From: Erythrobasidium yunnanense
Taxonomy: Eukaryota > Basidiomycota > Cystobasidiomycetes > Erythrobasidiales > Erythrobasidiaceae
Assembly (NCBI GenBank): GCA_001600175.1
Contig: BCJC01000001.1
Coordinates: 2,527,652-2,591,651 of the forward strand
Direction of reading: 5' to 3'
DNA: 64,000 nt
Below the pieces are notes generated by a model. That model was not told the origin of the DNA. It worked only from the letters and a program-made list of their open reading frames with translations, and did not search any database. The translations under genes and the position numbers were made by a program. Below are positions 2,785 to 39,751 of the stretch, one piece after another. How positions within the stretch are numbered: the stretch's first letter is position 1; the number at the start of each line of letters is the position of its first letter.

Positions 2785-5700
2785 TCAGGCATCTGCCGAC
2801 GACGAGCGGTCAAGGAAGGTGCTTTGTCGGATTGTATCTCGTCTAGGTCGGCCACCTCGCTGCGCCTCCGATGCATCTGCGGGTGGCGATGGGCTCACGC
2901 TTCGCATACGCTGATCGCCATTGAGCATATTCGCTTCATATTGATCCTGCTCTGATGCGGCCTGCGAGATGCTCTCGTCCAGAAGATTGGAAAGTCCGCC
3001 AATGTTGAGGTAGTGTGAGGCATCGGTAGTATTTCTCGATGTTCCTGTACTTGAGCCTGGTATATTCTGGTAGCCGTGCGCTGCGAACTGCATGCTGGCC
3101 GGTGCAGATCCACGAGCGATATGATTGGGCTGATTCGATCTGACAGGCAAACCTCGCGGAGGTGTGTGTGTGGGCATATGTGAGGCATTGTTCGATGTAG
3201 AAGAGGAGGGGCGAGAAAGAGAGGATGATAGACTGGCATTTGGCTGGGATTGCGGTTGCCAGGCTGGCCATAGTCCGTTGTCAGCCTGGTTGACGGGGCG
3301 GAAGGTGAAGGATGAGGCAGGGGGGAGTGTTGAGCTCGAGGGAGCGATATTCGATGGCCCGGCCTGAACATTGTCGGGGACGGCACTACTGCCTCGCGAC
3401 CCTCGATGACTAGGTCGGGAATACTGCTGCTGGTAGGTAGAGCCGCTTGCTACTGGCTGTTGGGCAGGAACAAAAGTCGGAGGATCATACGACGGTCCCA
3501 TAGTTGGCCTGTCATCATCATCGTCGTCTCCGCCTTCTTCGTCGCCGTCAATATCCTCATCGACATCGTCGTCCATGTCCGCATTCCCGCCTTGCTGTTG
3601 TTGCTGTATTTGCTGCTGCTCAAATTGTTGTTGCTGACTCAGGAATTGCGTTGCTAGAGCCAACTGCTGTTCCGCCGTAAGCTGAGTGGACCCGCTCTGC
3701 ACAGCTTGCATGTAGAGCTCGAGTGCATTGAGCGTGGAGGTGTTGCCGAGAGCAGCAGCCAGGTCGACTCCATGATGACCCAGAGGTATGCCCGCTGCAG
3801 CCCTCTCTTGCGAATGTCGAAGCGAGTCTAAATGGCTACGCAGTTCATGAACACCTTTGCCTGAATACACACAGAAAGTGCTGCGCTGATTGGGATTGAA
3901 GCCTTTCGGAGGAGGTCTGCAGAAATGCTGCAGGTCTGCTCTTCGGAAAGCTGGCACTCCAGTCAAAGAGAGGTGATTGAGTCGACGGAGATGGTCCAGG
4001 AGATACTGAACGGCGGAAACAGTGATGTGCTCGCAGTAAGAAAGGTGAATCCGCTCGAGGGTTGTACGCGCTGAAAGAGCTACGATAGCTTGATCGGTAA
4101 GGTTAGCGACCTGCATAAACGTGTACAGTTGATCAGTAAAGCGAGGTATAGATTGCACGAATATGCTTACCCGGACGAGACCAATTCGCTTCAGACGAGG
4201 GAGATGCGCAGCCAGCTCAAACACGCTAAGATCGGTGAGGGATGGACAGCAGGCCAGATCGATGTAACGTAGTCTGGTACAGCTTCTTGCTAGGTGAATG
4301 ACAGCTTTGTCGGTAATACTGGTTTCCAAACGTCAGTGAACTCATCCAAGATTTCGTTGGCAGAGCTCAATAGCAGACTCACTTGCTGACGTGTCCTAAA
4401 TGTAGGAAATGAATATACTTGCCGAGCTTCGCTATACTGAGTACGCTTGCATCTGTCAGGCTGCTACATTTCGCCAAGACCAGATTCCTGATATGCGGCA
4501 TAGTTACGACTATGCCTTCCATCGCTTGATCCGTCAGGCCGACCAGCGCTGTGAGATCGAGGTATCTGACATGTTCGAACATGTGAGAATGAAGAGGCGT
4601 AGTATGCTGAAAGTGAGGTAGAGATTCCATATACTCAGCAGCCGTCCTCTTGCTCGATCCAGGGGCACCCAGAAGAAGTGGTGTTTGGGAGAATTTCGAG
4701 TTGATTGGCTTGCGGCCGGCTATGGCGGGGTCGTTTGAGCCTTTGATGTACAGTAGAGAGCCGTCTTTCTGAGGGAAGCCGTCGCCCGTCACGGAGGTAC
4801 AGTTGTTGAGACTTAGTTCTCGGAGATGAGAACAATTGCGGTAGAGAGCCCAGAGTGTGCGGTCAGAGACTGCCGAGCACGTATACAGGTCCACCTCCAA
4901 AAGTAATGGGCAAGACAGCGCCAGCGCGATGACTGCGTTGTCTGACAGGGTGTCTAGATTACGGAGCTTGACCTAGAAAGACGAAACATCAGCAGAAACC
5001 CAAATCTCAGGGCAGCGCGGATTCGCTTACTCTACGGAGCATGGGACAGCCTTTGGCGACTGCTTGCATGCCGGCATCCGTCACCAGCTTGCAGCTACTC
5101 AGATTGAGGCCTTGTAGTCGAGTGCACACGCTCCCTGCTACCATGACTGTCTTATCTGTGACCTTGGCACAGTCGCTCAGATCCAGTGCTACCAAGTTCT
5201 TGCTCTTCGCTAAGAGAGCGGTGAGGGCCTCATCCGTGATCTCACTACATCCTGCCAATGTCAACCTCTCCAACTTTTCGCATACTGTTAACCGTTGAAG
5301 CAGTGCATCCGACATCCGATCCGCAAGGTGGGAGAAGTTGAGGCGCTTGATGAAGGATGCGTAAGGAAAAGTAGAGACCGGGCGAGAGAGGATGACGAGC
5401 ATCTTGATCAAGGGCCCGACATGCGGAAAGAGGGGTTTATTCCAAAGCAGCTCTACGCCGCATTGGCACCAGGACTTGCAGACGAGGAGACAGCTGACTA
5501 GATCCTGTGTTGCTCGTACGTTACGAAGGATCTTGAGAAGTATTTCGTGCGGTAAGAAGGCAGCCTTAGATGACGAGGAACGCTCGGCTACTCGGGCGTA
5601 GTGCTGGCTTGAGTCGGTAGCGTATACCGCACTCTGGCTGTTCTCGTGTGGCATGTATGTACCGTCCGACCGGCCATCATCGTCTTCGATACCGTGAGTA

Positions 5701-6242
5701 CTGGATCCGACGACACCGAAGGGCCAGAATGACCCGTTCTTTGCTGTAGGTGTCGCCAGAGCCGGGTAGTGTATCTGCATATCGTTATCCTTGTCATCCT
5801 CTAATTCGTCCTCTGTAGATTGCGCGCTATCTGTGATACTGGATCCCATCTTTGCGGCTCCGGTACCCAGGGCAAGACTGTGGTGATGGTGCTTCCGCCT
5901 TGACCCAGAGCTGAAGTAGTTGCCATGAGGTGAAGATGTCGAGGTGCTCGCTACTGCCGCGACATCGCTTGCATGTCGTGACTGCCCTGAGACACTTGCG
6001 GCAGGCGTCTCTGACGATGGCCCAGCTCGTGCAGTTCCCGGCTGATCCAGACCAGCGGGATCCATCAGCTCATCAGTATCGCCAGCTTCGTCGTTGTCGC
6101 CGTCGTCGTCGTCGCCATCTGCGCCAGATAGCGACTCTCCGGAGGTCGAGCTAGGGGATGTCGGTGTTGGTGCGCGCAGGTCAATCAGGTCGACGCTGTC
6201 GTTGTGACCAGCTTCAGGAGTAGCAGCCAGCTCCACGTCCAT
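2785..6242 (-). CDS. GRR1: F-box/leucine-rich-repeat protein, GRR1 type (SCF substrate receptor)
   Basis: Substrate-recognition subunit of an SCF ubiquitin ligase; in yeasts GRR1 controls nutrient sensing and G1 cyclin turnover. Exons are 6242-5031, 4972-4383, 4318-4171 and 4110-2785, giving 1,091 aa. Residues 1 to ~225 are acidic, Ser-rich and probably disordered. An F-box follows (FLPHEILLKILRNV, LLVCKSW). A long series of cysteine-containing LRRs comes next, with repeated units such as LERLTLAGCSEITDEAL and LVALDLSDCAKVTDKTV. The C-terminal ~350 residues contain Gln tracts, an acidic run and a Ser/Pro-rich tail. The repeat class and order match GRR1 rather than smaller FBXL proteins. The gene is divergent from the REB1-like gene, with start codons 141 bp apart, so they may share a promoter region. 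Identity by family is strong; the start is the first Met of a long open exon. Confidence 0.9.
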
Positions 6243-13963: not shown

Positions 13964-16183
13964 CTAGCGAGGTCTGCCAGTCATCTGTGCTACCATTTTG
14001 GGACGATTGGCATTATTGTTGCCTCTTTGCGCGAAGAAGTTTGCCGCTTTTTGCTGGCCACCTCCTCTATTGTGATGATTCTGTTTGCGATTGGGAGAGA
14101 TCGGAGAAGGCTGCTGATACGGACCGTTGTGCTGCCGACCTTGTTGATATGGCGTCTTCGGACCTGCTTGATGGTTGTATTTCACCTTCTGCGCCGGGAA
14201 TGGGTGAGCAGCGTCATTGTCTTCGCGATCCTTCCGCTTGCCGAGAGCGTTCCCTGTAGGGCTCGATGGGAGAGCCTGAGATACGCCATTTGGCCCTCCA
14301 TGCGTTTTTGCCTTCCCTACAGCATCTCCAAGTCGGTTGGTACGCTCGTAAAAGAGCATGTATGCATTCCGCTGACTTAATGCCTGTGATGGCTGCACAT
14401 CTCGAACAGTCGAATCGTTCATCTCATGCCAGCGGTTCTGTCCAGAACGGACGTGCGCGTAGTAATGCCCAGAATGGGGACCCGAGCCAGAGTGACTGAC
14501 CACTGCGTAAAGTCTGTATGTTGGATTACGCTGTACAGGGACAGAGTCAGTGCTAAGCTTCGATTGGTTTGAGGAGGCTCCACAGCTTACATCCGCAGTA
14601 CCGTCGCTCATGTAAGCGTCCAGATATAGCGTCTCTTGATACCCAATAGCTCCTCCAATCTTCTTGCCAGTCGGGGTAAAGCGCTTGAGGTGGATGTGCA
14701 GTATCTGCGGGGCCTTCTCAATAGTGAAGTGCTTTCGAGCATTCACTAGTTTCTTGCATCTGATAGACCAGAGGCTAGTTCAGCAAAGGCGCCCTGCTAA
14801 TCGAGGACTCAGGACTCACTTTTCGCATTTATACTTGTTTGCTCCTTGCAGGATGTCCTCCTTCACAAACGCTTGCAGAGCCTCTTTGACGTTATCCGAC
14901 CGCGACACGTCGAGTGAAAGGTCCATAAAGCCATCGAAGGTATCGCTGTTTTGTTTGCAATTCCCGCAGGCTACTCTTGAGCGCAATCTCCCACCAAATA
15001 TTCGAGCCATGAACGTATGTTCCTTCTCCGCATCTGTCTTGGCTGGTGGTGACATGTTCTTTGCTGCAGCTTCTTGCATGTGGTCTATACTGAATCTAAG
15101 GAATTCATGCGCGTCTTCTTGACGACCTACACGCATGTTTTTCGCAATGGCTAGCATATCCATCAGAATGAGCATGGAACATCTGTGCAGCAACTAGCTT
15201 ACTAGAGAGATTCCTAACTATATATGCGGGTTCCATCGCTCCAGGCGACCTGCCTTTCCTAAAACAAACTTGGATGTGCTTTTGCATCGCGCACAAAAGG
15301 CAGAATCTTCGGGTCGCAGCAATTTTGCCTGATAATAAGATGAGAAGCATCAGCTCTGGATGATTCATATGTCTCCCTGCTGGTGTCTCCTACATCTAGC
15401 TTGAGAATGGTGCATGTCTCCCATCAGACATGCCACGAGAGGCGGAGTATGGGTGAGAGCTTGAAGAGTGCTGTTGAGGAAGCAGGTGTTGCCAAGATTG
15501 TGATAACCCGGTCCGACTGGATACGATTGAGGCCAGCTCATGGGTAGAGGAACGAAAGAGGGCCCGGCTGATGCTGCCGCGTTCTGGTTGGTGGCTGCTG
15601 CTTTCCCCTTGCCATTGACTGTACTGCCTGGACTGGAGACTGTCTGATCCGGTGACAAACCAGTCGGCGGTACAGCAGCTCCTGGTGTTTTTGGGAAAGT
15701 CAGGTCTGCCTTGCCATTGAGCGTTGGCTGTAAAACGAGGATACATCAGTATAGTGAGGAAGCATGGTATGTCTACATCGTTGCTACCTTCTGCGGCCCA
15801 GACGGCAATGGTTCGTACGGGACTTTTTGACTCGCATCGTCTCCAAACCTCGCATTCACCCATGTGAGTGGATCTTTGAGCAGAGAAGCAATATCTGCGA
15901 AGTCTTGGGCGATATCGCGGTTCAGACGAGCCATGAGGCCCGGCCCAGCGGCTGACGTTCCTTCGCCGAGGTCAAAAGCGTCGTCGTCTTCGCTGTCTTG
16001 ATCTTCTGCAGCATGGTGAGCGTTCTGCATTGGTGCTACGTCCTTGTGTGCATCATTTCCAGCGATATTCAGCGGCCGATCATTCTTGAGCGTCGACGAC
16101 GAGGAAGGCTGCTGCTGCGACTGCTTGTGTTTCGGACGGGCGAGCTGAGTGCTGGACAGCGTAGAGGTATACGTCGCCGACAT
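13964..16183 (-). CDS. Ubiquitin carboxyl-terminal hydrolase, USP36/42-like
   Basis: Peptidase C19 cysteine protease that removes ubiquitin. The start is taken at 16183 (MSATYTSTLSS). An upstream in-frame Met at 16291 would add a hydrophobic stretch and seems less likely. The first ~200 residues are low-complexity with an acidic EDQDSEDDDAF patch. The Cys box LGNTCFLNSTLQAL contains the nucleophile. QEDAHEFLRFSIDH follows, then a zinc-finger pair (CGNCKQ and KCEKCKK) and the His box GSGPHSGHYYAHVR, with NDSTV after it. The tail is Asn/Gly/Gln-rich and basic. Domain order and the Asn/Gly/basic tail resemble nucleolar USP36/UBP10-type enzymes. Introns interrupt the domain at about 15788-15730, 15400-15300, 15210-15160, 14820-14770 and 14590-14535; exact joints in the middle were not all fixed. 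Confidence 0.88.
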
Positions 16184-21209: not shown

Positions 21210-22122
21210 CTACGAGCAGCATGGGCGAGTGCAGCCAAGTTTGACGCAGACCGTTCTGACAATGTTTGATGAGTAGAACACTCTGATGTACAGCTAGTAG
21301 ACTCACAGTCCAGATCCCAGCTGATTTCTGGATATGCTTTCTACTAGCGTGTATCCTCTCTGTTTCTGCCATTTTTGCTCGAGCAGACGATGAACACCGT
21401 CAATTGATTGCACGTTGTAGTACCTCAGAGTGAGCCTCGGAAAGAGACAAATAAGGCGACCTTCATGTATCTTGTTCATGACCACGGTCGAGTGAAACTC
21501 GTTGACGAAAGTGTGGACCTGTGCAAAAGCTTTCAGATTTGCAAGGAAAGGAAATGTCGGAACGGTAGCCTACATCCTTGCTCGTAATTATCAGGTCGAT
21601 ATGGGCATAATGATCGTCTTTGCACAGAGCTTTGCGGGTAAAGCCGTCCAAATGCTCATCGTAGCCGTTAACGTCCTCCACAGAGTACCCAAAGGACACG
21701 AGAAGCGCGACAAGAGACTCGTGCGTCGCTCTTGGGCAGAAGAGATCGAGGTCCGAGTAGGCAAAGTGATGATTGTTCAGGATCTGCAAGGGCACAGATC
21801 CAGAGATGATAGCCTGATACTGCTCCAAGGCATCTAGAAATGATCTTCAAGTCCAGATTAGCTGGCGAGCCAGCTCGGCAGCCAATGCGACATCGTACGT
21901 GACTTGGTCAGGCGGGACCCAACGCGAGAGATAATTGGCCGTTCGATGCTTGAGAACTTGCTTTGCAGACGTGTGCAACACAGAGCAGGTCAGGCCGCAC
22001 GCTCGAAGCTGTCAGATCGATGGTCATGCAGGGCCATCGTCGTACGCAAGAGAGGAACAAACCGTCGCCATGTCCATATAGCTCCCGATCTCGAACAGTA
22101 CATCTTCAGGCAAGTTCTGCAT
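21210..22122 (-). CDS. F-box-like/nucleotidyltransferase-like protein, array copy 1
   Basis: Exons 22122-22063, 22008-21899, 21844-21574, 21518-21307 and 21255-21210 give 232 aa. Exon 1 encodes an F-box-like helix start (LPEDVLFEIGSYMDMAT). Exon 2 continues with LRACGLTCSVLHTSAKQVL and RWVPPDQVT. Exon 3 has a polymerase-beta-type nucleotidyltransferase pattern: ISGSVPLQILNN, then SDLDLFCP (DxD), then HIDLIIT with a third Asp. Exon 4 gives FHSTVVMNKIHEGRLIC, FPRLTLRYYN and LLEQKWQKQRGY. Exon 5 gives the Cys motif TVCVKLGCTRPCC and stops one residue later, so this copy has the shortest tail. The minimal triad (GS, DxD, D) is kept, which argues against simple decay. Role, substrate and SCF membership are unknown; the F-box assignment rests on the N-terminal pattern only. 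Confidence 0.75.
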
Positions 22123-22395
22123 TGTAGTAGTGATAAGAGAAACAACAGGCAGTCCTGAAGTCCCAAATTTCTACTTGTAAGACGCGACCGTTGGAGCCGT
22201 TGAACGCGATCGCCTAACCTACTCTCACGCCAGCTGCGGAAGGCTCACTCTATCAATAACAGGACTAACGGACTCCCAAGAAAGTATCGACACTAAGATG
22301 GTTGCTAAGCCTGCAAGGACTGGCCAAAGATACGAGAAACAGCGTCAGGGCGTGTCATCAATGGCCTTGATTCGCGCAACAAGAACTCACACATT

Positions 22396-23495
22396 TCATA
22401 GAAACAATTCAAGAATGGATGCCAAGCTGTAGTTCGCTCTACCGTCGGCTTCTAGTGCGCGCTTCCAAGCTGATTCTCCTTGGTGGGCTGCGTACTTCTG
22501 CAAAAAGGTACCTGACCTTCTCTCTGTGTGTGTCCCATCCTCCTGAGAGGATTGCAGGCCGGGTCGGCAGCAGGCGCGAACGCAGCCAAGTCTGACACAG
22601 ACGGTCCTGAAAAGCTGACGTAAGGCGACATCGATGTACGGAATCTCTGAACTCACAATTCTGATCCTCGCCATCTGTAGTGTCTACTGCTGATTACCTT
22701 ATAGCCCCTCTGGTCCAGCCATTTTTCTTCGACCAGATCTTGAGCCCTTGTCGTATTGAGTTTGTTCAGATATCGTAATGTGAGCCTTGGATATAGACAA
22801 ATCAAGCGACCTTGATGTATCTCGTTCATTACGACGGTCGAGTGAAATGTTTTCACATGTCCATGAACCTATCCGATGACCGTTAGAGCAAAAAGAGCAG
22901 GTGAGTGTCCATATACTCGCATCATACGCGCGCGGAACCAAAAGGTCTATGTAGGGAGCATCCTGGTCTCTACGTAGGATCTGCCGCTGGAAGGTGATCA
23001 TCTCGTCCATATCATAGATCTCGTCATCATAGAAGTCGCCGTCGTCGTCGTAACCGTATGTAGAGAGGAAGTCTATGAGGGATCTGTATGAGGCCTCTGG
23101 GCATATTACATCCAAGTCGGATGATCCAAAGTATTGATTATTGAGTATCTGAACAGGGATCGAGCCAGAGATAATTGCTCCGTGCTCCTCCAATACATCT
23201 AGGAAGGATCTATCATATCAAGGCTGCATTAGCCTTGAACATTTCGGGCGTACGCTGCATCATCGTACGTGACCTGGTCATGAGGCACCCAGCGAGCCAG
23301 ATAATCTGCTGTGCGATGCTTGATAACGTTCTTTGTAACAACCCGAGCCAGAGAGCATGTTGCGCCGAATGCTTGTAGCTGGCAATCCGGCGGTCATTGC
23401 GAGGTCCATCGCAAGTACGCGAGAGGCCAACCCACCGTAGCCATGTCCATTTCGCTAGCAATGACAAAAAGCACGTCTTCATGTAGTTTCTGCAT
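22396..23495 (-). CDS. F-box-like/nucleotidyltransferase-like protein, array copy 2
   Basis: Exons 23495-23436, 23378-23269, 23209-22921, 22868-22657 and 22606-22396 give 293 aa. Exons 1, 2 and 4 have exactly the lengths of copies 1 and 3 (60, 110 and 212 nt). Landmarks are LHEDVLFVIASEMDMAT, LQAFGATCSLARVVTKNV, ISGSIPVQILNN, SSDLDVICP and YIDLLVP. The tail has TVCVRLGCVRACCRPG and continues about 55 residues to SLASILELFL. The intron after exon 3 starts with GC (GAT|GCGAGT, 52 nt), where copies 1 and 3 use GT at the same codon position. An acidic insertion (DDDGDFYDDEIYDMDE) lies between the DxD and the third Asp. The gene looks intact. Confidence 0.75.
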
Positions 23496-23761
23496 CGGAG
23501 GAGTCGTGGAGAATACAACATGCAGCTCTCGTTCTCCAAACATTTCTACCTTTGTTGGACGCGACCATTGAAGCCGTCAGGCACGATCTCCTGATCACAT
23601 CGCCATACTGTCAATAGCTAGCTTCTAAAGGATCCAGACTGCTTTTCACTGCTGGTGTAGCCTCGACTAGCATCCGACATCCGAATCTCCTCGCCGAGCT
23701 GAAAGGACGGTCGTCAGTATATGTTTCTGGTTCCAGGATGCAAAGAGCAGACATACGTTAT

Positions 23762-25043
23762 TTACAGTCTGAAGTCTCTGAGCACGAGAGATGCCAGTGT
23801 CTCGACGATCTGATTCTCCTTGCTGTTTGCAACAGCTGAGGCGCCGCTGACGTCGCGAGCTAATGCTGGCGACGGCATCTCTTGTCCTCCGAAATATGAT
23901 GCTGCATTCTTTGGCCACTCTGTAGCGTCTGACTCGCAACATGCGCGTGTACAGCCGATCTTGATGCAGGTACTTCTGTGAAGGCTTCCTTTAGCGCTAT
24001 AGTCTCGCGGCAGCTGGCTCCCTTACAATTGAGTCCCAATCTGATCATGATGAAAGCCGTGTACAAGCCTGTACTTCCTCACGTCCCGCCATTTCTGTTC
24101 TACTAGTTCGCGGGCGTCCTCCTTTAAGAGCACATTTTGGTACTTCAAAGTGAGCTTGGGGAAGCAGCAGATTAAGCGACCACTATGTATCTTGTTCATG
24201 ACGACAGTCGAATGGAAAGCTTCGACATGATTATGGACCTATATAGATTCCATCTGAGTTGAGGTTGAAAGAGACAATGGGCGATTGTGCAGTTGACTGA
24301 CATTCATAGTCGGTATCAAGAAGTCGATATAAGGACCTCCGCCACGTTTGCGCAAGACTCTGCGCCTGAAGGAGGTCGAATGGGAACCATAGTAGCTTCG
24401 GATTGCCCCGTAGCCAGCGCGCTCAAGATCCTCGTTCTCCGCGTGGTAGCCGTAAGCAGAGAGAACTGCAAGAAGGGCTTCATGCATGATCTCTGGACAG
24501 AGGATATCGAGGTCGGAACTCCCAAACCAGTGATTGTTCATAATCTGCAGCGGAATCGAGCCCGAGATGATGGCTCCGTGCTCTTCCAGAGCGTCTAGCA
24601 AAGATCTTCGCACATCTAGTCAGTTAAGGCCAGCAGGCTGGCGTCCAGATTCTTGTCGTACTCGACACGTTCAAGAGGTACCCAGCGGGCTAGATGTCTA
24701 AGTGTGCGCTGTTTGAGTACTTGTTTCGAGGTAACGTGCAAAATGGAGCATGTCTGGCCGCAGGCTGAGAGCTGGAAAGCTGATTACCACAGAAGACCTG
24801 GTCGGAAAGTGCGCGTTTCACTCGATGGGAGAGAGAGAAGCAAAGGGTCGAAAGCTAATTTACAACTCGAATACTCTGGCCTTGTACCGCAATAGTACTA
24901 CGCTCATGTCTTTAAGTAGGTTTCTGTATCTAATGCTGCCTAGTAGCTCCGCCCAACCTTCGGTGCGTGAGGAAGAGACGAACCATCGCCAGATCCATGT
25001 AGCTAGCGATCTCAAACAGTATATTTCTAGGCAATTGCTGCAT
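23762..25043 (-). CDS. F-box-like/nucleotidyltransferase-like protein, array copy 3
   Basis: Exons 25043-24984, 24771-24662, 24605-24302, 24238-24027 and 23975-23762 give 299 aa. Landmarks are LPRNILFEIASYMDLAM, LSACGQTCSILHVTSKQVL, ISGSIPLQIMNN, SSDLDILCP, YIDFLIP and FHSTVVMNKIHSGRLIC. The tail has STCIKIGCTRACCES followed by about 55 residues ending VLRDFRL. Intron 1 is 212 nt, against about 55 nt in copies 1 and 2, and may hold an insertion. Copies 1 and 3 share the sequence CTACTACAATGCAG over the start codon. This is the most upstream member of the head-to-tail array; gaps between members are 266 and 273 bp. Confidence 0.75.
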
Positions 25044-34792: not shown

Positions 34793-37700
34793 TTATTGCC
34801 GGCTCTGGTCGAGCAGCATGATGACAGCTTGTTCATTAGCGCCTTTGAATGCATTAGGTCCATCTTCCAGCTTGTATACACGCCTGACGGCCGGCTTGAG
34901 TTGGCCTGCCTCGGCTATTACTCGCAGTCTGTCGAGAGCCAGGCGCTGATCGTGCTCCGTTTGCTCTGGGAACCAGTAGCGAATGTTCTGAGATACACTA
35001 TCAGCAAATATTCAAGATACCTAACGCCTGTTCTCACCTTCTCCCGCTTGTCTTTGCGGCCGAAAAGCGCCTTCAAAGACTTTCGCCATTGAGGCTTTTT
35101 TGTAGGTGTGGACAATGCATCTCCCACTGTCGTCACTGAGGAATAAGGCTGTATCAGCCCATGCCTGACTAGATGGAGATTGGTTTGACTCACCAAAGTA
35201 TCCGTTATCGTGAAGGACATGCTTCATGGTATCGTATACTTTCCGTCCTCCAATCGTATCAAGCACAGCGTCATAGCTTGATTCTCTCAGCGTCGACATA
35301 GCATGCAGTACTTCCCCGCAAAGCGTCTCTGATGCGCCGAGAGCTTTCAAGCTAACATCGCCCTCCGTGAAATCTGGAGGATAGTGCGCTACGATCCATA
35401 GATCTCCAGCTGGTCGTAAGCTCGTGATGAGCTGCAGTGCTATGGCTCCGACACCTTCGTGCGCATTCAAGATGATGAGCTTCGATCCACGCTCGAGAGT
35501 GCTGCAGAGCTCGTCCATGGCTTGATATGCTGATATCCCGGAAAGCGCTACGGTAGCTATTTGCTCAAGTGATAGACATCCATTTGGCGCTGCAGTAAGC
35601 AGGCCTCGCTGTACCGAGATGTAGTCTGCTAAAGCGCCCGACTGCAAAGAATCATAGCTCTATCAGCCTGGGTGCAGAGTTGCGAAGACTGTTCCAACTC
35701 ACCCTCTTCAGGTCCTGCAGCCCGTATACAAAGCTTCCCCTTGACACTTTCGCCGCATCTACTTCTGCGCCCGTATCTAGCACCTTGCCTACAAACGCTC
35801 GGCCAGGTATGAAGCCATAGCCCTGTCCTCGAGAATGCATGATCTCCACTTTTGCGCGATCCCAGAAATCGATAGCACATGCAAAGACCTGCACCAGGCA
35901 TTCATCTGAGCGGATCTTATGCGGCACAGGCGCCAGATTCGAATATGTGATGTTCGCTCTAGCTGCATTTCGATTCTGTAGATGCGAAGGTAGATTCGGG
36001 TCTTGCCGTAGTTTCGTGTTTGTGTTGTTTCGGAAGAAGGACCGATTTAGTGTTTGTGCAGCGTTACTTGTGACAGTGAGGGAGCGCATTGTGCTATTCG
36101 ATTTTGGAAGGGTGATCTTCCCGGATGCAAGAGCGGTAGCTGAATCGGCTCGTACATGTCGCATTCCGGAAAGATAGCCACCTGAAGGTATCGTCATGCC
36201 GCCGACAGAATGCTGGCTGGTAGATCCATTCTCAGATGTCTGTGTATTTGCTCGAAGTAGATCGGAGCTTGCGGGCCCATTCGAAGCAGGGACAGGCGGC
36301 TTTCCGTTTGACTTGTCCAGTAGGTACATGCCTGAAAGATCGTCTGCTATCTGAGGATGTGCGTCCAAGGCGGTGAGGATGTTGGGCATTTCCACCGCAC
36401 CAGTCTCGGTAGGAGAGCGTTGGTGCGAAGGTGAAGAGCCTCGGCGCCGCGATGGATAAGTGAAGGTCGGACCTGGACTGTCGCCGACCGCGCTGTTTGT
36501 CATTGCAGACCTGGGAGGCGTCGACTTGCCATCGACTGCCGTGGGGCGTGCATCTCCATTGATAGACGCTGCAGGCGTAGTCGTACGCGAATATGAGCTG
36601 ACAGAGGATGACGCATCCTTCTGTCTGTTTTCTGGGAATGGGATCTCTGATACAGGTGGACCTGGAGAAGCACCGTTCGCCTGAGCCACCTGGAAGCCCG
36701 AAGGTGTCGCTTCCTGACTGAAGACATCGCTCTGACCACGGCTTGCTGCATCTTCCGGCGCGTAGATGACGCTTTCTCTTCGTCGTTCGTCGGATATTGT
36801 CCTTGTGACAAAGACTCGAGGAGGCACTGCTATCGATTCTGTTACTTGTGCAGACGTAGCTTGACTATGTGTCGAGCCATTCGTGTAGCTCCGAGACGGA
36901 ACGGGAGACTCTCTATTCGGACTGCGGGGTGGAATCGGAGGTGCTGTCACTGCCGAAGTAGCTGTTGGCGTATGACCAGTCGGCGTGTTAGACCTTGATC
37001 TAGGAGGAGTGGATTGAGGAGTAGCGACTCTTGAAGAAGGTAGGTTGGCGTAGTAGTTGCTTCCTGAATTGTTATCCCAGTGCACTTGGCCTGACCCATC
37101 CTCAAGTCTAAGAGCCATCTGTATGTCCATCTCCTGACTGCCCGGAGGCGTATTCCACACGAATTGCCATCGACTGAGTTCCGCCGTGGCAGTGCCAGAG
37201 GTCTCTGCTGGCACTTCCTCGTAGGTCTGCCACTGATTCCACGTTATTCTGGCAACTACGGCAGTAGGTGCGAAAGCTCCTGAGACCAATATCGTTCCCT
37301 CTAGCACACGTGATACGATGTGACCTGAAGAAGTACTTGTAATCATGGACGCTGATTCTAAGCGGAGAGGCGTATTCCATGATGGTTGCGGCAGCGTTCC
37401 TGCAGGAATAAGCAAGGAAGGTATCCTTTTGATGGGAGCAGCCGTGACTATTGGCTCTAAAGCTTCTTCCTTCGATTCTACAGCTTGCGATGGCACGCCG
37501 GCTTGGGCAGGTGTTGCGCCATCGACGATCTGCTCAGTTGCAGAGACTGGCTGAGTCGTACCAGGCTGAGCAGAAAGCGCTTCCGAAATATCCGCTCCCG
37601 GCTGGAGTCCGTTCTGTTCGTTCTTATAAAGTGGCTGCGAAGGAGTGCCGGAGTTGTGAATAGTCTCTAACGGATTAGGAATTTCAGAAGGCGGAGTGAA

Positions 37701-39751
37701 GAAAGCGTCTCTTTCTGTATACGATGAAGCCAAGGGCTGATTCGCCAGCGGCAAGCCGGCATCGAGGCTAGGCTGTACCAGGCGGCTCTGGTCGGTGATG
37801 ACCGATGGCACTTGAACAGTGTCCTCCGGTCTTGGTGCTTCTGACACATAGTCCCCAGACGGTGAAATGGCGGTCATTGCCATGATGGTGCTGACGTCGA
37901 TACCACCGCTTGCACTCCTTGCTGTCATACCCAAAGACGTAGGACCGCGTCTCTCCTGCAAAGAGAGACCAGCGTTGGGACGCGGCGCTTGTTGATCTTC
38001 AGACTCAGGGACTCTGCTACGCTGCACAGCTTCTTCTGGCTTGGTTGCGGCAACGGCAGGATTTGCCTCTAGTTCTGTCCGCCTTGGCTCTTCCGAAGTC
38101 ATGCCGTTTGTGACAGGAATAGGCGGCAGCTCTGTCGTTCCATTGACTTGAGCTCCCGCCTGATTCGCAAGATCCGGCATAGTCGCAGATGTGACCATGA
38201 ATGTTGGCGGCTGGATCGCCTGCTGTTGCGGCGCTTCTGGGATGGATGGTGTCATAGACGACCGCCGACTACCGTTCTTGCTAGCCCTATCCCCAGCAGA
38301 TGAGATATCGTCTTCATCGACTTCAGCGACTACTTCCATAACTCGATCCAGTATTCCAGCTTTCGACAGCGCTTCTACAATCTGTTCAGCTGACCGATCC
38401 TGTTTTCATGTGTATTAGCGGGACTTCTGCACAAGAATCGCTGGATCATATTGCTGCTCACCTTGACTTTCCTCGTCCCAGTAGAGGATCGAGGTGCTGC
38501 TAGTAGGTTGTTTTGCAGTATCGAGGATTGCAGTTTGATCGCAGGCGCCTGTCCTGCTGCGGTAGACTGGGTTGTGCTTGGCGTGTTCGGGGCAGCCACA
38601 GGATTTGAGGTTGTCCGTACTCTGCTAGAACCAGACTTCCTACTTCCAGGATTAGAAGCACTGCGTTTTAAGCTTGACGTAGAAGTATCTGAATCCGAGA
38701 AGGTTACATGCGGCGACGAAGTCGAGGCAGAAAGAGGCTTCAAGCCAGACTTTTCGCGCTGCTTCGCTGAGTGCTTTGAGTGTTGGACTGTTCGCATGTT
38801 GAAAGATGCCTCTGAGCTGGAAGGCGAAGAGTTTCTGGATGTATCTGCATTGTTTGCGGATCCTGCTGGGAACGCAATGGGCTCTATAGCTGGCTGTGCG
38901 GGCGCCGTTGCGCTCTCAGGGTCTGCTGAACTGAGTGGTGACGGTTTTGAGGGCGAAGTGGGCTGCAGCGTGTACTTCCTAGACGGCTGAGCATTGGCGA
39001 GATCGAGATGCTTTCCGCTAGATTTGCGCTTGACGAGTGCAGTGAGAGGGTTTGAGCTGGCTTTGGGCGCTCCAGCTGAAATGCCTGCACCTCCTAGGTT
39101 GTTGTGCCATGATTGTAAAGAGGGAGACTTGGGTACGCCTGTCACTTGCTCCGTCCTGCTTCCCCGGCGCACTCTTCTGGACAGCGAGTTGACACTTCCT
39201 GCATCCGAAGCAGTATCACTCATAATGGAAGGCGTGCGCCTTACTCCGCCCGGTCTGCGATACCCTCCAGCTTCCGACATGATCTCATTTCTCGATGGGT
39301 GCCCTGATGTCGCATTGCCCAGTCTGCTGTCTCTTCTGGGTGAACTGTCATCGAAGAGTGCAGGATTGATATCGCTGAAAGTGACGCTTCTTCTACTGTC
39401 TCTGCTGTCGATAGACGGATTCCGTTGCAAACCGCCTGGCCGGCTTATGGGAAGAGTATCGTATGTCCTTGAAGCGCCAATATCGGAAGCTGCGCTCCTA
39501 CTTCCTCGCAAGATCCCAGAGGGCATGCTGGTGAAGCGGCCAGACTCTCTTCTGGGCGAGTAGCCCGTTTTCAATGTGTCATTGTTTCCCGTCAGGCGCC
39601 GGCTGAAGCTTGCATTGCTGTCTTGTCCTCTACTCTGGTAGGATGCGACGCTTCTTCGCTCGTCGTTGATGTCGCCAGCATCACTCCCTGTTCCGAGGTA
39701 GCTTCTTGACGGGCGATTTGTGAGGCGCTGGGAGAGCGAAGGCGCAGGCAT
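34793..39751 (-). CDS. 1,575-aa disordered protein with C-terminal MDR (quinone oxidoreductase-like) domain
   Basis: Exons 39751-38462, 38399-35703, 35641-35195 (possibly 35194), 35135-35038 and 34987-34793 form one frame. Residues 1 to ~1,200 are Ser/Pro/Thr-rich and probably disordered. A helical island, SAEQIVEALSKAGILDRV, lies at the first splice joint. Near residue 480 a short strand-rich patch (VARITWNQWQTYEEV, WQFVWNTPPGSQEMDI) may be a folded module. The last ~370 residues are a medium-chain dehydrogenase/reductase: DECLVQVFACAIDFWDRAK, GYGFIPGRAFVGKVLDTG, ALADYISVQRGLL and a Rossmann segment KLIILNAHEGVGAIALQLI. Zinc-ligand cysteines of classical ADHs are absent. A basic insert (WRKSLKALFGRKDKREK) interrupts the late part. 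AST1-type MDR proteins are a possible relative, unproven. Confidence 0.8.

What the first reader, a model, noticed from the sequence alone, without database searches (positions are those of the whole stretch)
21210..25043. Tandem array of three F-box-like plus nucleotidyltransferase-like genes
Three head-to-tail genes share one five-exon design with exons 1, 2 and 4 of exactly 60, 110 and 212 nt. Each joins a short F-box-like start to a core with GS, then DxD (SDLD(L/V/I)(F/I/L)CP), then a third Asp in (H/Y)ID(L/F)(I/L)(I/V/P). That is the minimal catalytic pattern of the polymerase-beta nucleotidyltransferase superfamily. A substrate adaptor fused to a nucleotidyltransferase fold would be an unusual pairing: it could modify or sense its target as well as recruit a ubiquitin ligase. 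Divergence is high outside these motifs, yet the motifs persist, which suggests selection.
Basis: partly seen in the sequence, partly recalled or inferred. Interest (0 to 1): 0.85.

Follow-up and report, generated by a model that had tools for sequence, protein, structure and literature searches.

The report
Fungal F-box–nucleotidyltransferase fusion gene array
A fungus-like genome carries a row of three related genes that join a protein-destruction docking motif to an enzyme fold that normally attaches nucleotides to other molecules; the pairing looks real, is seldom described, and its job is unknown.

Summary
Three minus-strand genes (A 25043-23762, B 23495-22396, C 22122-21210) share a five-exon design with exons 1, 2 and 4 of exactly 60, 110 and 212 nt. 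A fourth copy (D) in the same 20.9 Mb genome has the same sizes; a divergent relative (E) is collinear. F-box: D passes a Pfam cut-off, C misses by 0.3 bits, A and E match below it, B has no listed match. Nucleotidyltransferase (NTase): the signature is rare by shuffling, two AlphaFold models show the expected helix-strand order, and 48 of 50 and 45 of 50 listed PDB matches are NTase-superfamily, though none is individually significant. Copies are old and under purifying selection. The pairing has a precedent: chlamydial NEX2 proteins join an F-box to a putative NTase (PMC4209131, passages read), and two giant-virus proteins named F-box are among the viral fold matches. Best reading: an SCF-docked, probably catalytic NTase. 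Transcripts, Skp1 binding and catalysis are untested. Interest moderate.

The parts
23762..25043 (-). Gene A, 299 aa: exons 25043-24984, 24771-24662, 24605-24302, 24238-24027, 23975-23762 (60, 110, 304, 212, 214 nt)
22396..23495 (-). Gene B, 287 aa: exons 23495-23436, 23378-23269, 23209-22939, 22868-22657, 22606-22396 (60, 110, 271, 212, 211 nt); intron 3 donor weak (GTTCCG)
21210..22122 (-). Gene C, 232 aa: exons 22122-22063, 22008-21899, 21844-21574, 21518-21307, 21255-21210 (60, 110, 271, 212, 46 nt)
21899..22122 (-). F-box-like region of C (exons 1-2)
   Evidence: PF12937 24.0 bits, cut-off 24.3
24662..25043 (-). F-box-like region of A (exons 1-2)
   Evidence: PF12937 20.6 bits, cut-off 24.3
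23269..23495 (-). Homologous region of B (exons 1-2); no F-box family listed for B
   Evidence: alignment; Pfam
24302..24605 (-). Exon 3 of A: NTase core (GS, DxD, third Asp)
22939..23209 (-). Exon 3 of B: NTase core
21574..21844 (-). Exon 3 of C: NTase core
24027..24238 (-). Exon 4 of A: conserved FHSTVVMN...P.LTL.Y region
22657..22868 (-). Exon 4 of B: FHSTVVMN region
21307..21518 (-). Exon 4 of C: FHSTVVMN region
21210..21255 (-). Exon 5 of C: short cysteine motif C-x4-C-x3-CC before the stop (also in A, B, D; A and B run on)
24801..24962 (.). Dispersed repeat inside intron 1 of A
   Evidence: (7 other places listed)

Best explanation
The genes encode small fusion proteins: an N-terminal F-box-like segment (exons 1-2) that would dock on Skp1 of an SCF ubiquitin ligase, then a polymerase-beta-type nucleotidyltransferase core (exon 3) with an intact GS / DxD / D signature, a conserved C-terminal region (exon 4) and a short cysteine motif (exon 5). 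Most likely the NTase is a working Mg-NTP enzyme acting on a small molecule, RNA or protein, and the F-box couples it to the SCF, either to ubiquitinate what the NTase binds or to limit the enzyme's own amount. Shown: gene structure by homology of four copies, motif conservation, purifying selection. Predicted: the NTase fold. Inferred: Skp1 binding, catalysis, coupling.
For: Exon design kept in 4 of 4 close copies; signature residues G, S, D, D, D invariant across A-E; shuffles and window background; AlphaFold model of C in order H-E-H-E-H-E-E-E over residues 77-180, with 8 of the 10 ten-residue pLDDT means from 81 to 180 above 70, range 51-91; 48/50 and 45/50 listed PDB fold matches are NTase superfamily, counting RelA/SpoT-type synthetases; DUF4269 matches the GS-DxD stretch in 4 of 4 copies at E 0.0015-0.17, below cut-off, and a six-frame search of the whole genome with it rings once at E <= 1, in copy D; F-box scores, and the N-terminus of D finds a 470-aa protein of the same genome (E 0.30) that passes both F-box cut-offs and has no NTase motif; Skp1 and cullin matches present; omega 0.09-0.23 for 5 of 6 pairs, dS saturated.
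Against: No PDB fold match reaches E 0.001 (best 0.025 and 0.035); models have low mean pLDDT (53.5, 63.7), shallow alignments (9 and 11 rows) and include retained introns with stops read as residues. No sequence relative of a known NTase in the PDB at E <= 10. B has no listed F-box match; only D of five passes a cut-off. Neither Skp1 binding nor catalysis is tested. The exon 4 part of the model is low confidence.
Confidence: 0.5

Rival explanations
1. An ordinary SCF substrate receptor in which the NTase fold no longer catalyses and serves only to recognise a target or a nucleotide ligand.
For: F-box proteins usually carry a binding domain (established knowledge), and this genome has about 95 of 140 listed F-box-like places over cut-off (hand count), many clustered, as expected of diversifying receptors.
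Against: All three acids and GS are invariant in A-E, which a pure binding role would not obviously need.
Confidence: 0.25
2. A small NTase with helical N-terminal elements that resemble an F-box but do not bind Skp1.
For: 4 of 5 members score below Pfam cut-offs or have no match; the F-box part of model C has pLDDT means of 44-61 over residues 1-70, with intron 1 retained inside it.
Against: D passes PF00646 (24.1 vs 20.5), C is 0.3 bits short on PF12937, and divergent E still matches F-box (18.6, below cut-off) in the same frame as its GS motif.
Confidence: 0.15
3. A growth-inhibiting or defence NTase (in the manner of RNA-modifying NTase toxins) whose built-in F-box keeps its level low until needed.
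For: Divergent tandem copies (47-56% identity); fold neighbours include tRNA, poly(A)/poly(U) and RelA-type NTases.
Against: No direct evidence; strong purifying selection is not typical of an arms race.
Confidence: 0.07
4. The models are wrong or the genes are decayed copies.
For: B intron 3 has a weak donor; E needs a GC-AG intron to keep both GS and DxD.
Against: Same exon sizes and phases in 4 of 4 close copies, no stops, saturated dS with low dN.
Confidence: 0.03

Closest known systems
Neochlamydia NEX2 family (PMC4209131, passages read)
   Same: N-terminal F-box in most members and, in most, a mid-protein DUF294 that the authors call a putative nucleotidyltransferase; an expanded paralogous family (50 proteins)
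   Different: Bacterial proteins with C-terminal TPRs and a different NTase family; no sequence comparison was made here
Giant-virus proteins in BFVD: A0A1V0SK13 (Klosneuvirus, named F-box domain-containing), A0A2I2L471 (Orpheovirus, F-box with LRR)
   Same: Named F-box proteins that match the model of gene C by fold (E 0.006 and 0.0088)
   Different: Which part aligns was not shown and their sequences were not read; no sequence relatives found in viral contigs
ANT(2'')-Ia / LnuA-type small-molecule adenylyltransferases
   Same: Small size, minimal core; Foldseek probability 0.97 (model A) and 0.85 (model C)
   Different: E-values 0.09-0.35, so not significant; no F-box is known in them (recalled); no sequence match found in the PDB search
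Cid1/TUT, poly(A) polymerase, DNA polymerase beta/mu, CCA enzyme
   Same: Core order; most of the listed fold matches
   Different: Fold-level similarity only, none at E <= 0.001; other C-terminal domains (recalled)
Hypothetical proteins of mushroom-forming fungi with GS, DLD and FHST-VMN motifs (recalled, no call)
   Same: Motif order as recalled from memory
   Different: Not tested: no fungal collection is on hand, so this is only a lead

Membership tests
F-box proteins | Pfam F-box or F-box-like match over the curated cut-off | tested here: inconclusive
   1 of 5 over (D, PF00646 24.1 vs 20.5); C 24.0 vs 24.3, A 20.6 vs 24.3, E 18.6 vs 20.5; B none listed
F-box proteins | Binds Skp1 within an SCF complex | not testable with these tools
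   Skp1 (2 places) and cullin (12 places) match in the genome; binding needs a bench test
Polymerase-beta-like nucleotidyltransferase superfamily | hG[GS], then Dh[DE]h, then third acid in h[DE]h (pattern recalled) | tested here: met
   A-D, 4 of 4, by strict pattern; E collinear with DMD and GIDIL in the alignment, its splice unsettled
Polymerase-beta-like nucleotidyltransferase superfamily | Core fold with NTases as nearest structures | tested here: inconclusive
   48/50 and 45/50 listed PDB rows are NTases but none at E <= 0.001; BFVD 2 rows at E <= 0.001, one uncharacterised Klosneuvirus protein, one unnamed
Polymerase-beta-like nucleotidyltransferase superfamily | Three acids cluster around metal ions | not testable with these tools
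   Model coordinates not available
Polymerase-beta-like nucleotidyltransferase superfamily | Nucleotide transfer activity | not testable with these tools
   Needs an assay
Pfam DUF4269 (PF14091) | Match over curated cut-off 28.9 | tested here: not met
   12.6-19.3 bits in A-D
Neochlamydia NEX2 family | DUF294 and C-terminal TPR repeats beside the F-box | tested here: not met
   No DUF294 or TPR match listed for A-D at E <= 10 (HMMER's filters drop most weak matches)

The most novel reading that the evidence does not exclude
A fungal enzyme family in which an active nucleotidyltransferase is itself the SCF substrate receptor, so that nucleotide transfer to a bound target and its ubiquitination are coupled in one small protein, an arrangement reached separately in chlamydiae and possibly giant viruses.
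Probability: 0.15. Interest if true: 0.8.

Novelty: new variant of a known kind. Interest (0 to 1): 0.48.

Why it matters
If the NTase is active, this would be a compact link between nucleotide transfer and ubiquitin-mediated turnover, and a small protein in which both could be tested at once. That a similar pairing is in print for chlamydial symbionts, and that named F-box proteins of giant viruses match the fold, suggests a recurring design worth a systematic survey.

Tried and rejected
Sequence search for solved relatives with the A-C profile found no NTase: 4 matches, at E 0.17 or worse. Scans of viral and prokaryote contigs with two alignments (A2, A7) gave no relative by tblastn, phage records no match with C, NCBIfam none for 5 of 5 members. 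Literature searches listed nothing that showed this pairing in fungi; PMC3482391 was looked at by passages only, PMC6232586 seen in a listing only; two searches were broader and their papers, apart from PMC11646218, were seen as listings. Kuchta et al. 2009, the main NTase classification, is not held; passages of PMC11646218, which cites it, were read instead. VIA-align 2 was not available. The match on C5 to the N-terminus of D was checked and is an F-box protein without the NTase motif. A 31-nt pattern from downstream of B recurred nowhere else in the window. Prenylation of the terminal CC was considered and dropped: no CaaX box by eye, and A and B run on past it. Pseudogenes were considered and dropped for A-D because of open frames and low omega. 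E stays unsettled: of 8 in-frame splice options listed, the 2 with a GT donor lose GS; a 62-nt GC-AG intron aligns best.

Full report
Observation. Introns are 50-70 nt, except intron 1 of A (212 nt), which holds a dispersed repeat. The intron 3 donor of B (GTTCCG) is poor.

Family in the genome. Searching the genome with C found a fourth copy D on C9 (299954-300889) and a weak match on C6 (E 0.01). D has exons of 60, 110, 286, 212 and 46 nt. The C6 relative E has, in order, an F-box-like stretch and ITGS in one uninterrupted frame (L025:1724-1966), DMD and GIDIL in the next piece, and FHSTAVVN in the next. Profile comparison with A-D gives E 9e-9 for the FHST piece, and only 0.021 and 0.028 for the other two, all collinear. 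A search with D at E <= 10 listed, beyond A-D, one match on C5 (E 0.30), which is a 470-aa F-box protein without the NTase motif; it did not list E, so other divergent members could be missed. Identities to C are 52, 53 and 56% for D, A and B.

F-box. Pfam scores: D PF00646 24.1 bits (cut-off 20.5, passed); C PF12937 24.0 (cut-off 24.3); A PF12937 20.6; E PF00646 18.6; B no F-box family listed. Skp1 and cullin matches are present. The genome is rich in F-box-like places: about 95 of 140 listed pass the cut-off, counted by hand.

NTase. The strict signature (hh.G[GS], 9-16 residues, DhDh, 30-80 residues, hDhh) is in 4 of 4 copies, in 2, 17, 6 and 0 of 20,000 shuffles of A, B, C and D, and in 3 of 212 long frames of the window, which are A, B and C; a looser form appears in 172, 245, 79 and 110 shuffles. 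The patterns were written after the sequences were seen. G, S, D, D and D are invariant in the five-member alignment. Two AlphaFold jobs were run on contiguous DNA only: A exons 3-4 with intron 3 (mean pLDDT 53.5) and C exons 1-3 with introns 1-2 (63.7). Both show the helix-strand order of the NTase core. Foldseek against the PDB lists NTase-superfamily chains in 48 of 50 rows for A (others: 6bu2 A and B) and 45 of 50 for C (others: 6u8y, 5lnk, 7arc, 3vb0, 9csj), counting RelA/SpoT-type synthetases, whose relation to the pol-beta fold is stated in PMC3482391 (passage). The rows were sorted by their titles and my knowledge of those proteins. There were 555 and 294 matches in all at E <= 10, of which 50 each were listed. 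No row reaches E 0.001, and no control protein was run. Against viral models two rows do, an uncharacterised Klosneuvirus protein and one without a name. Sequence profiles alone are weak: DUF4269 at the GS-DxD stretch in 4 of 4 copies at E 0.0015-0.17, below cut-off. That DUF4269 belongs to the NTase clan is recalled, from no call. A six-frame genome search with it rings once at E <= 1, in D.

Selection and age. dN is 0.36-0.47 over 6 pairs; dS is 1.6-4.9 for 5 pairs and not computable for C-D (saturated); omega is 0.09-0.23 for those 5, rough because of the saturation. The copies are old and constrained. C and D stop right after the cysteine motif (exon 5 of 46 nt in both); A and B run on with unlike tails, which suggests loss of the ancestral stop.

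Mechanism. The simplest reading is an SCF-docked NTase with an intact active site. Whether the F-box serves target ubiquitination or self-turnover, and what the NTase acts on, is open. A non-catalytic receptor is the main rival.

Known or new. The chlamydial NEX2 family pairs an F-box with a putative NTase (PMC4209131, passages read), so the pairing itself is in print in bacteria. Two giant-virus proteins named F-box are among the fold matches of C, though which part aligns was not shown. No paper on a fungal F-box/NTase pairing was found in this open-licence library by the searches made. From memory only, mushroom-forming fungi have hypothetical proteins with similar motifs; no collection here could test that. 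I therefore rate it a new variant of a known kind.

Noticed in passing
window 24801-24962: A 162-nt dispersed repeat sits in intron 1 of gene A; the genome search listed 7 other places, one on C5 identical over the full length and the others shorter.
   Followed up: partly
own genome, e.g. C1:3273536-3308968, C5:981467-1014025, C1:2613319-2628980: Large expansion of F-box-like genes in clusters; about 95 of 140 listed places pass the Pfam cut-off, hand count.
   Followed up: no
L036 (C5:1009258): A 470-aa F-box protein (PF12937 26.1 bits, PF00646 24.7) that begins MQNLPQEIL, close to the start of the array genes; no NTase motif. It could mark the source of the array's F-box.
   Followed up: partly
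window 5007-6242 (-): A conventional F-box/LRR protein (PF12937 40.0 bits, LRR_6).
   Followed up: partly
window 13964-15193 (-): Ubiquitin carboxyl-terminal hydrolase gene (PF00443 in two frames), about 6 kb from the array.
   Followed up: partly
window 35021-38339 (-): An 895-aa frame with a CBM21 starch/glycogen-binding module; its C-terminus and the next frame look like a zinc-type dehydrogenase by eye (recalled pattern).
   Followed up: no
L025:1724-2468 (C6:598223-598967): Relative E keeps both NTase motifs only with a GC-AG intron (best 62 nt), so it may be decayed or use a non-canonical splice.
   Followed up: partly
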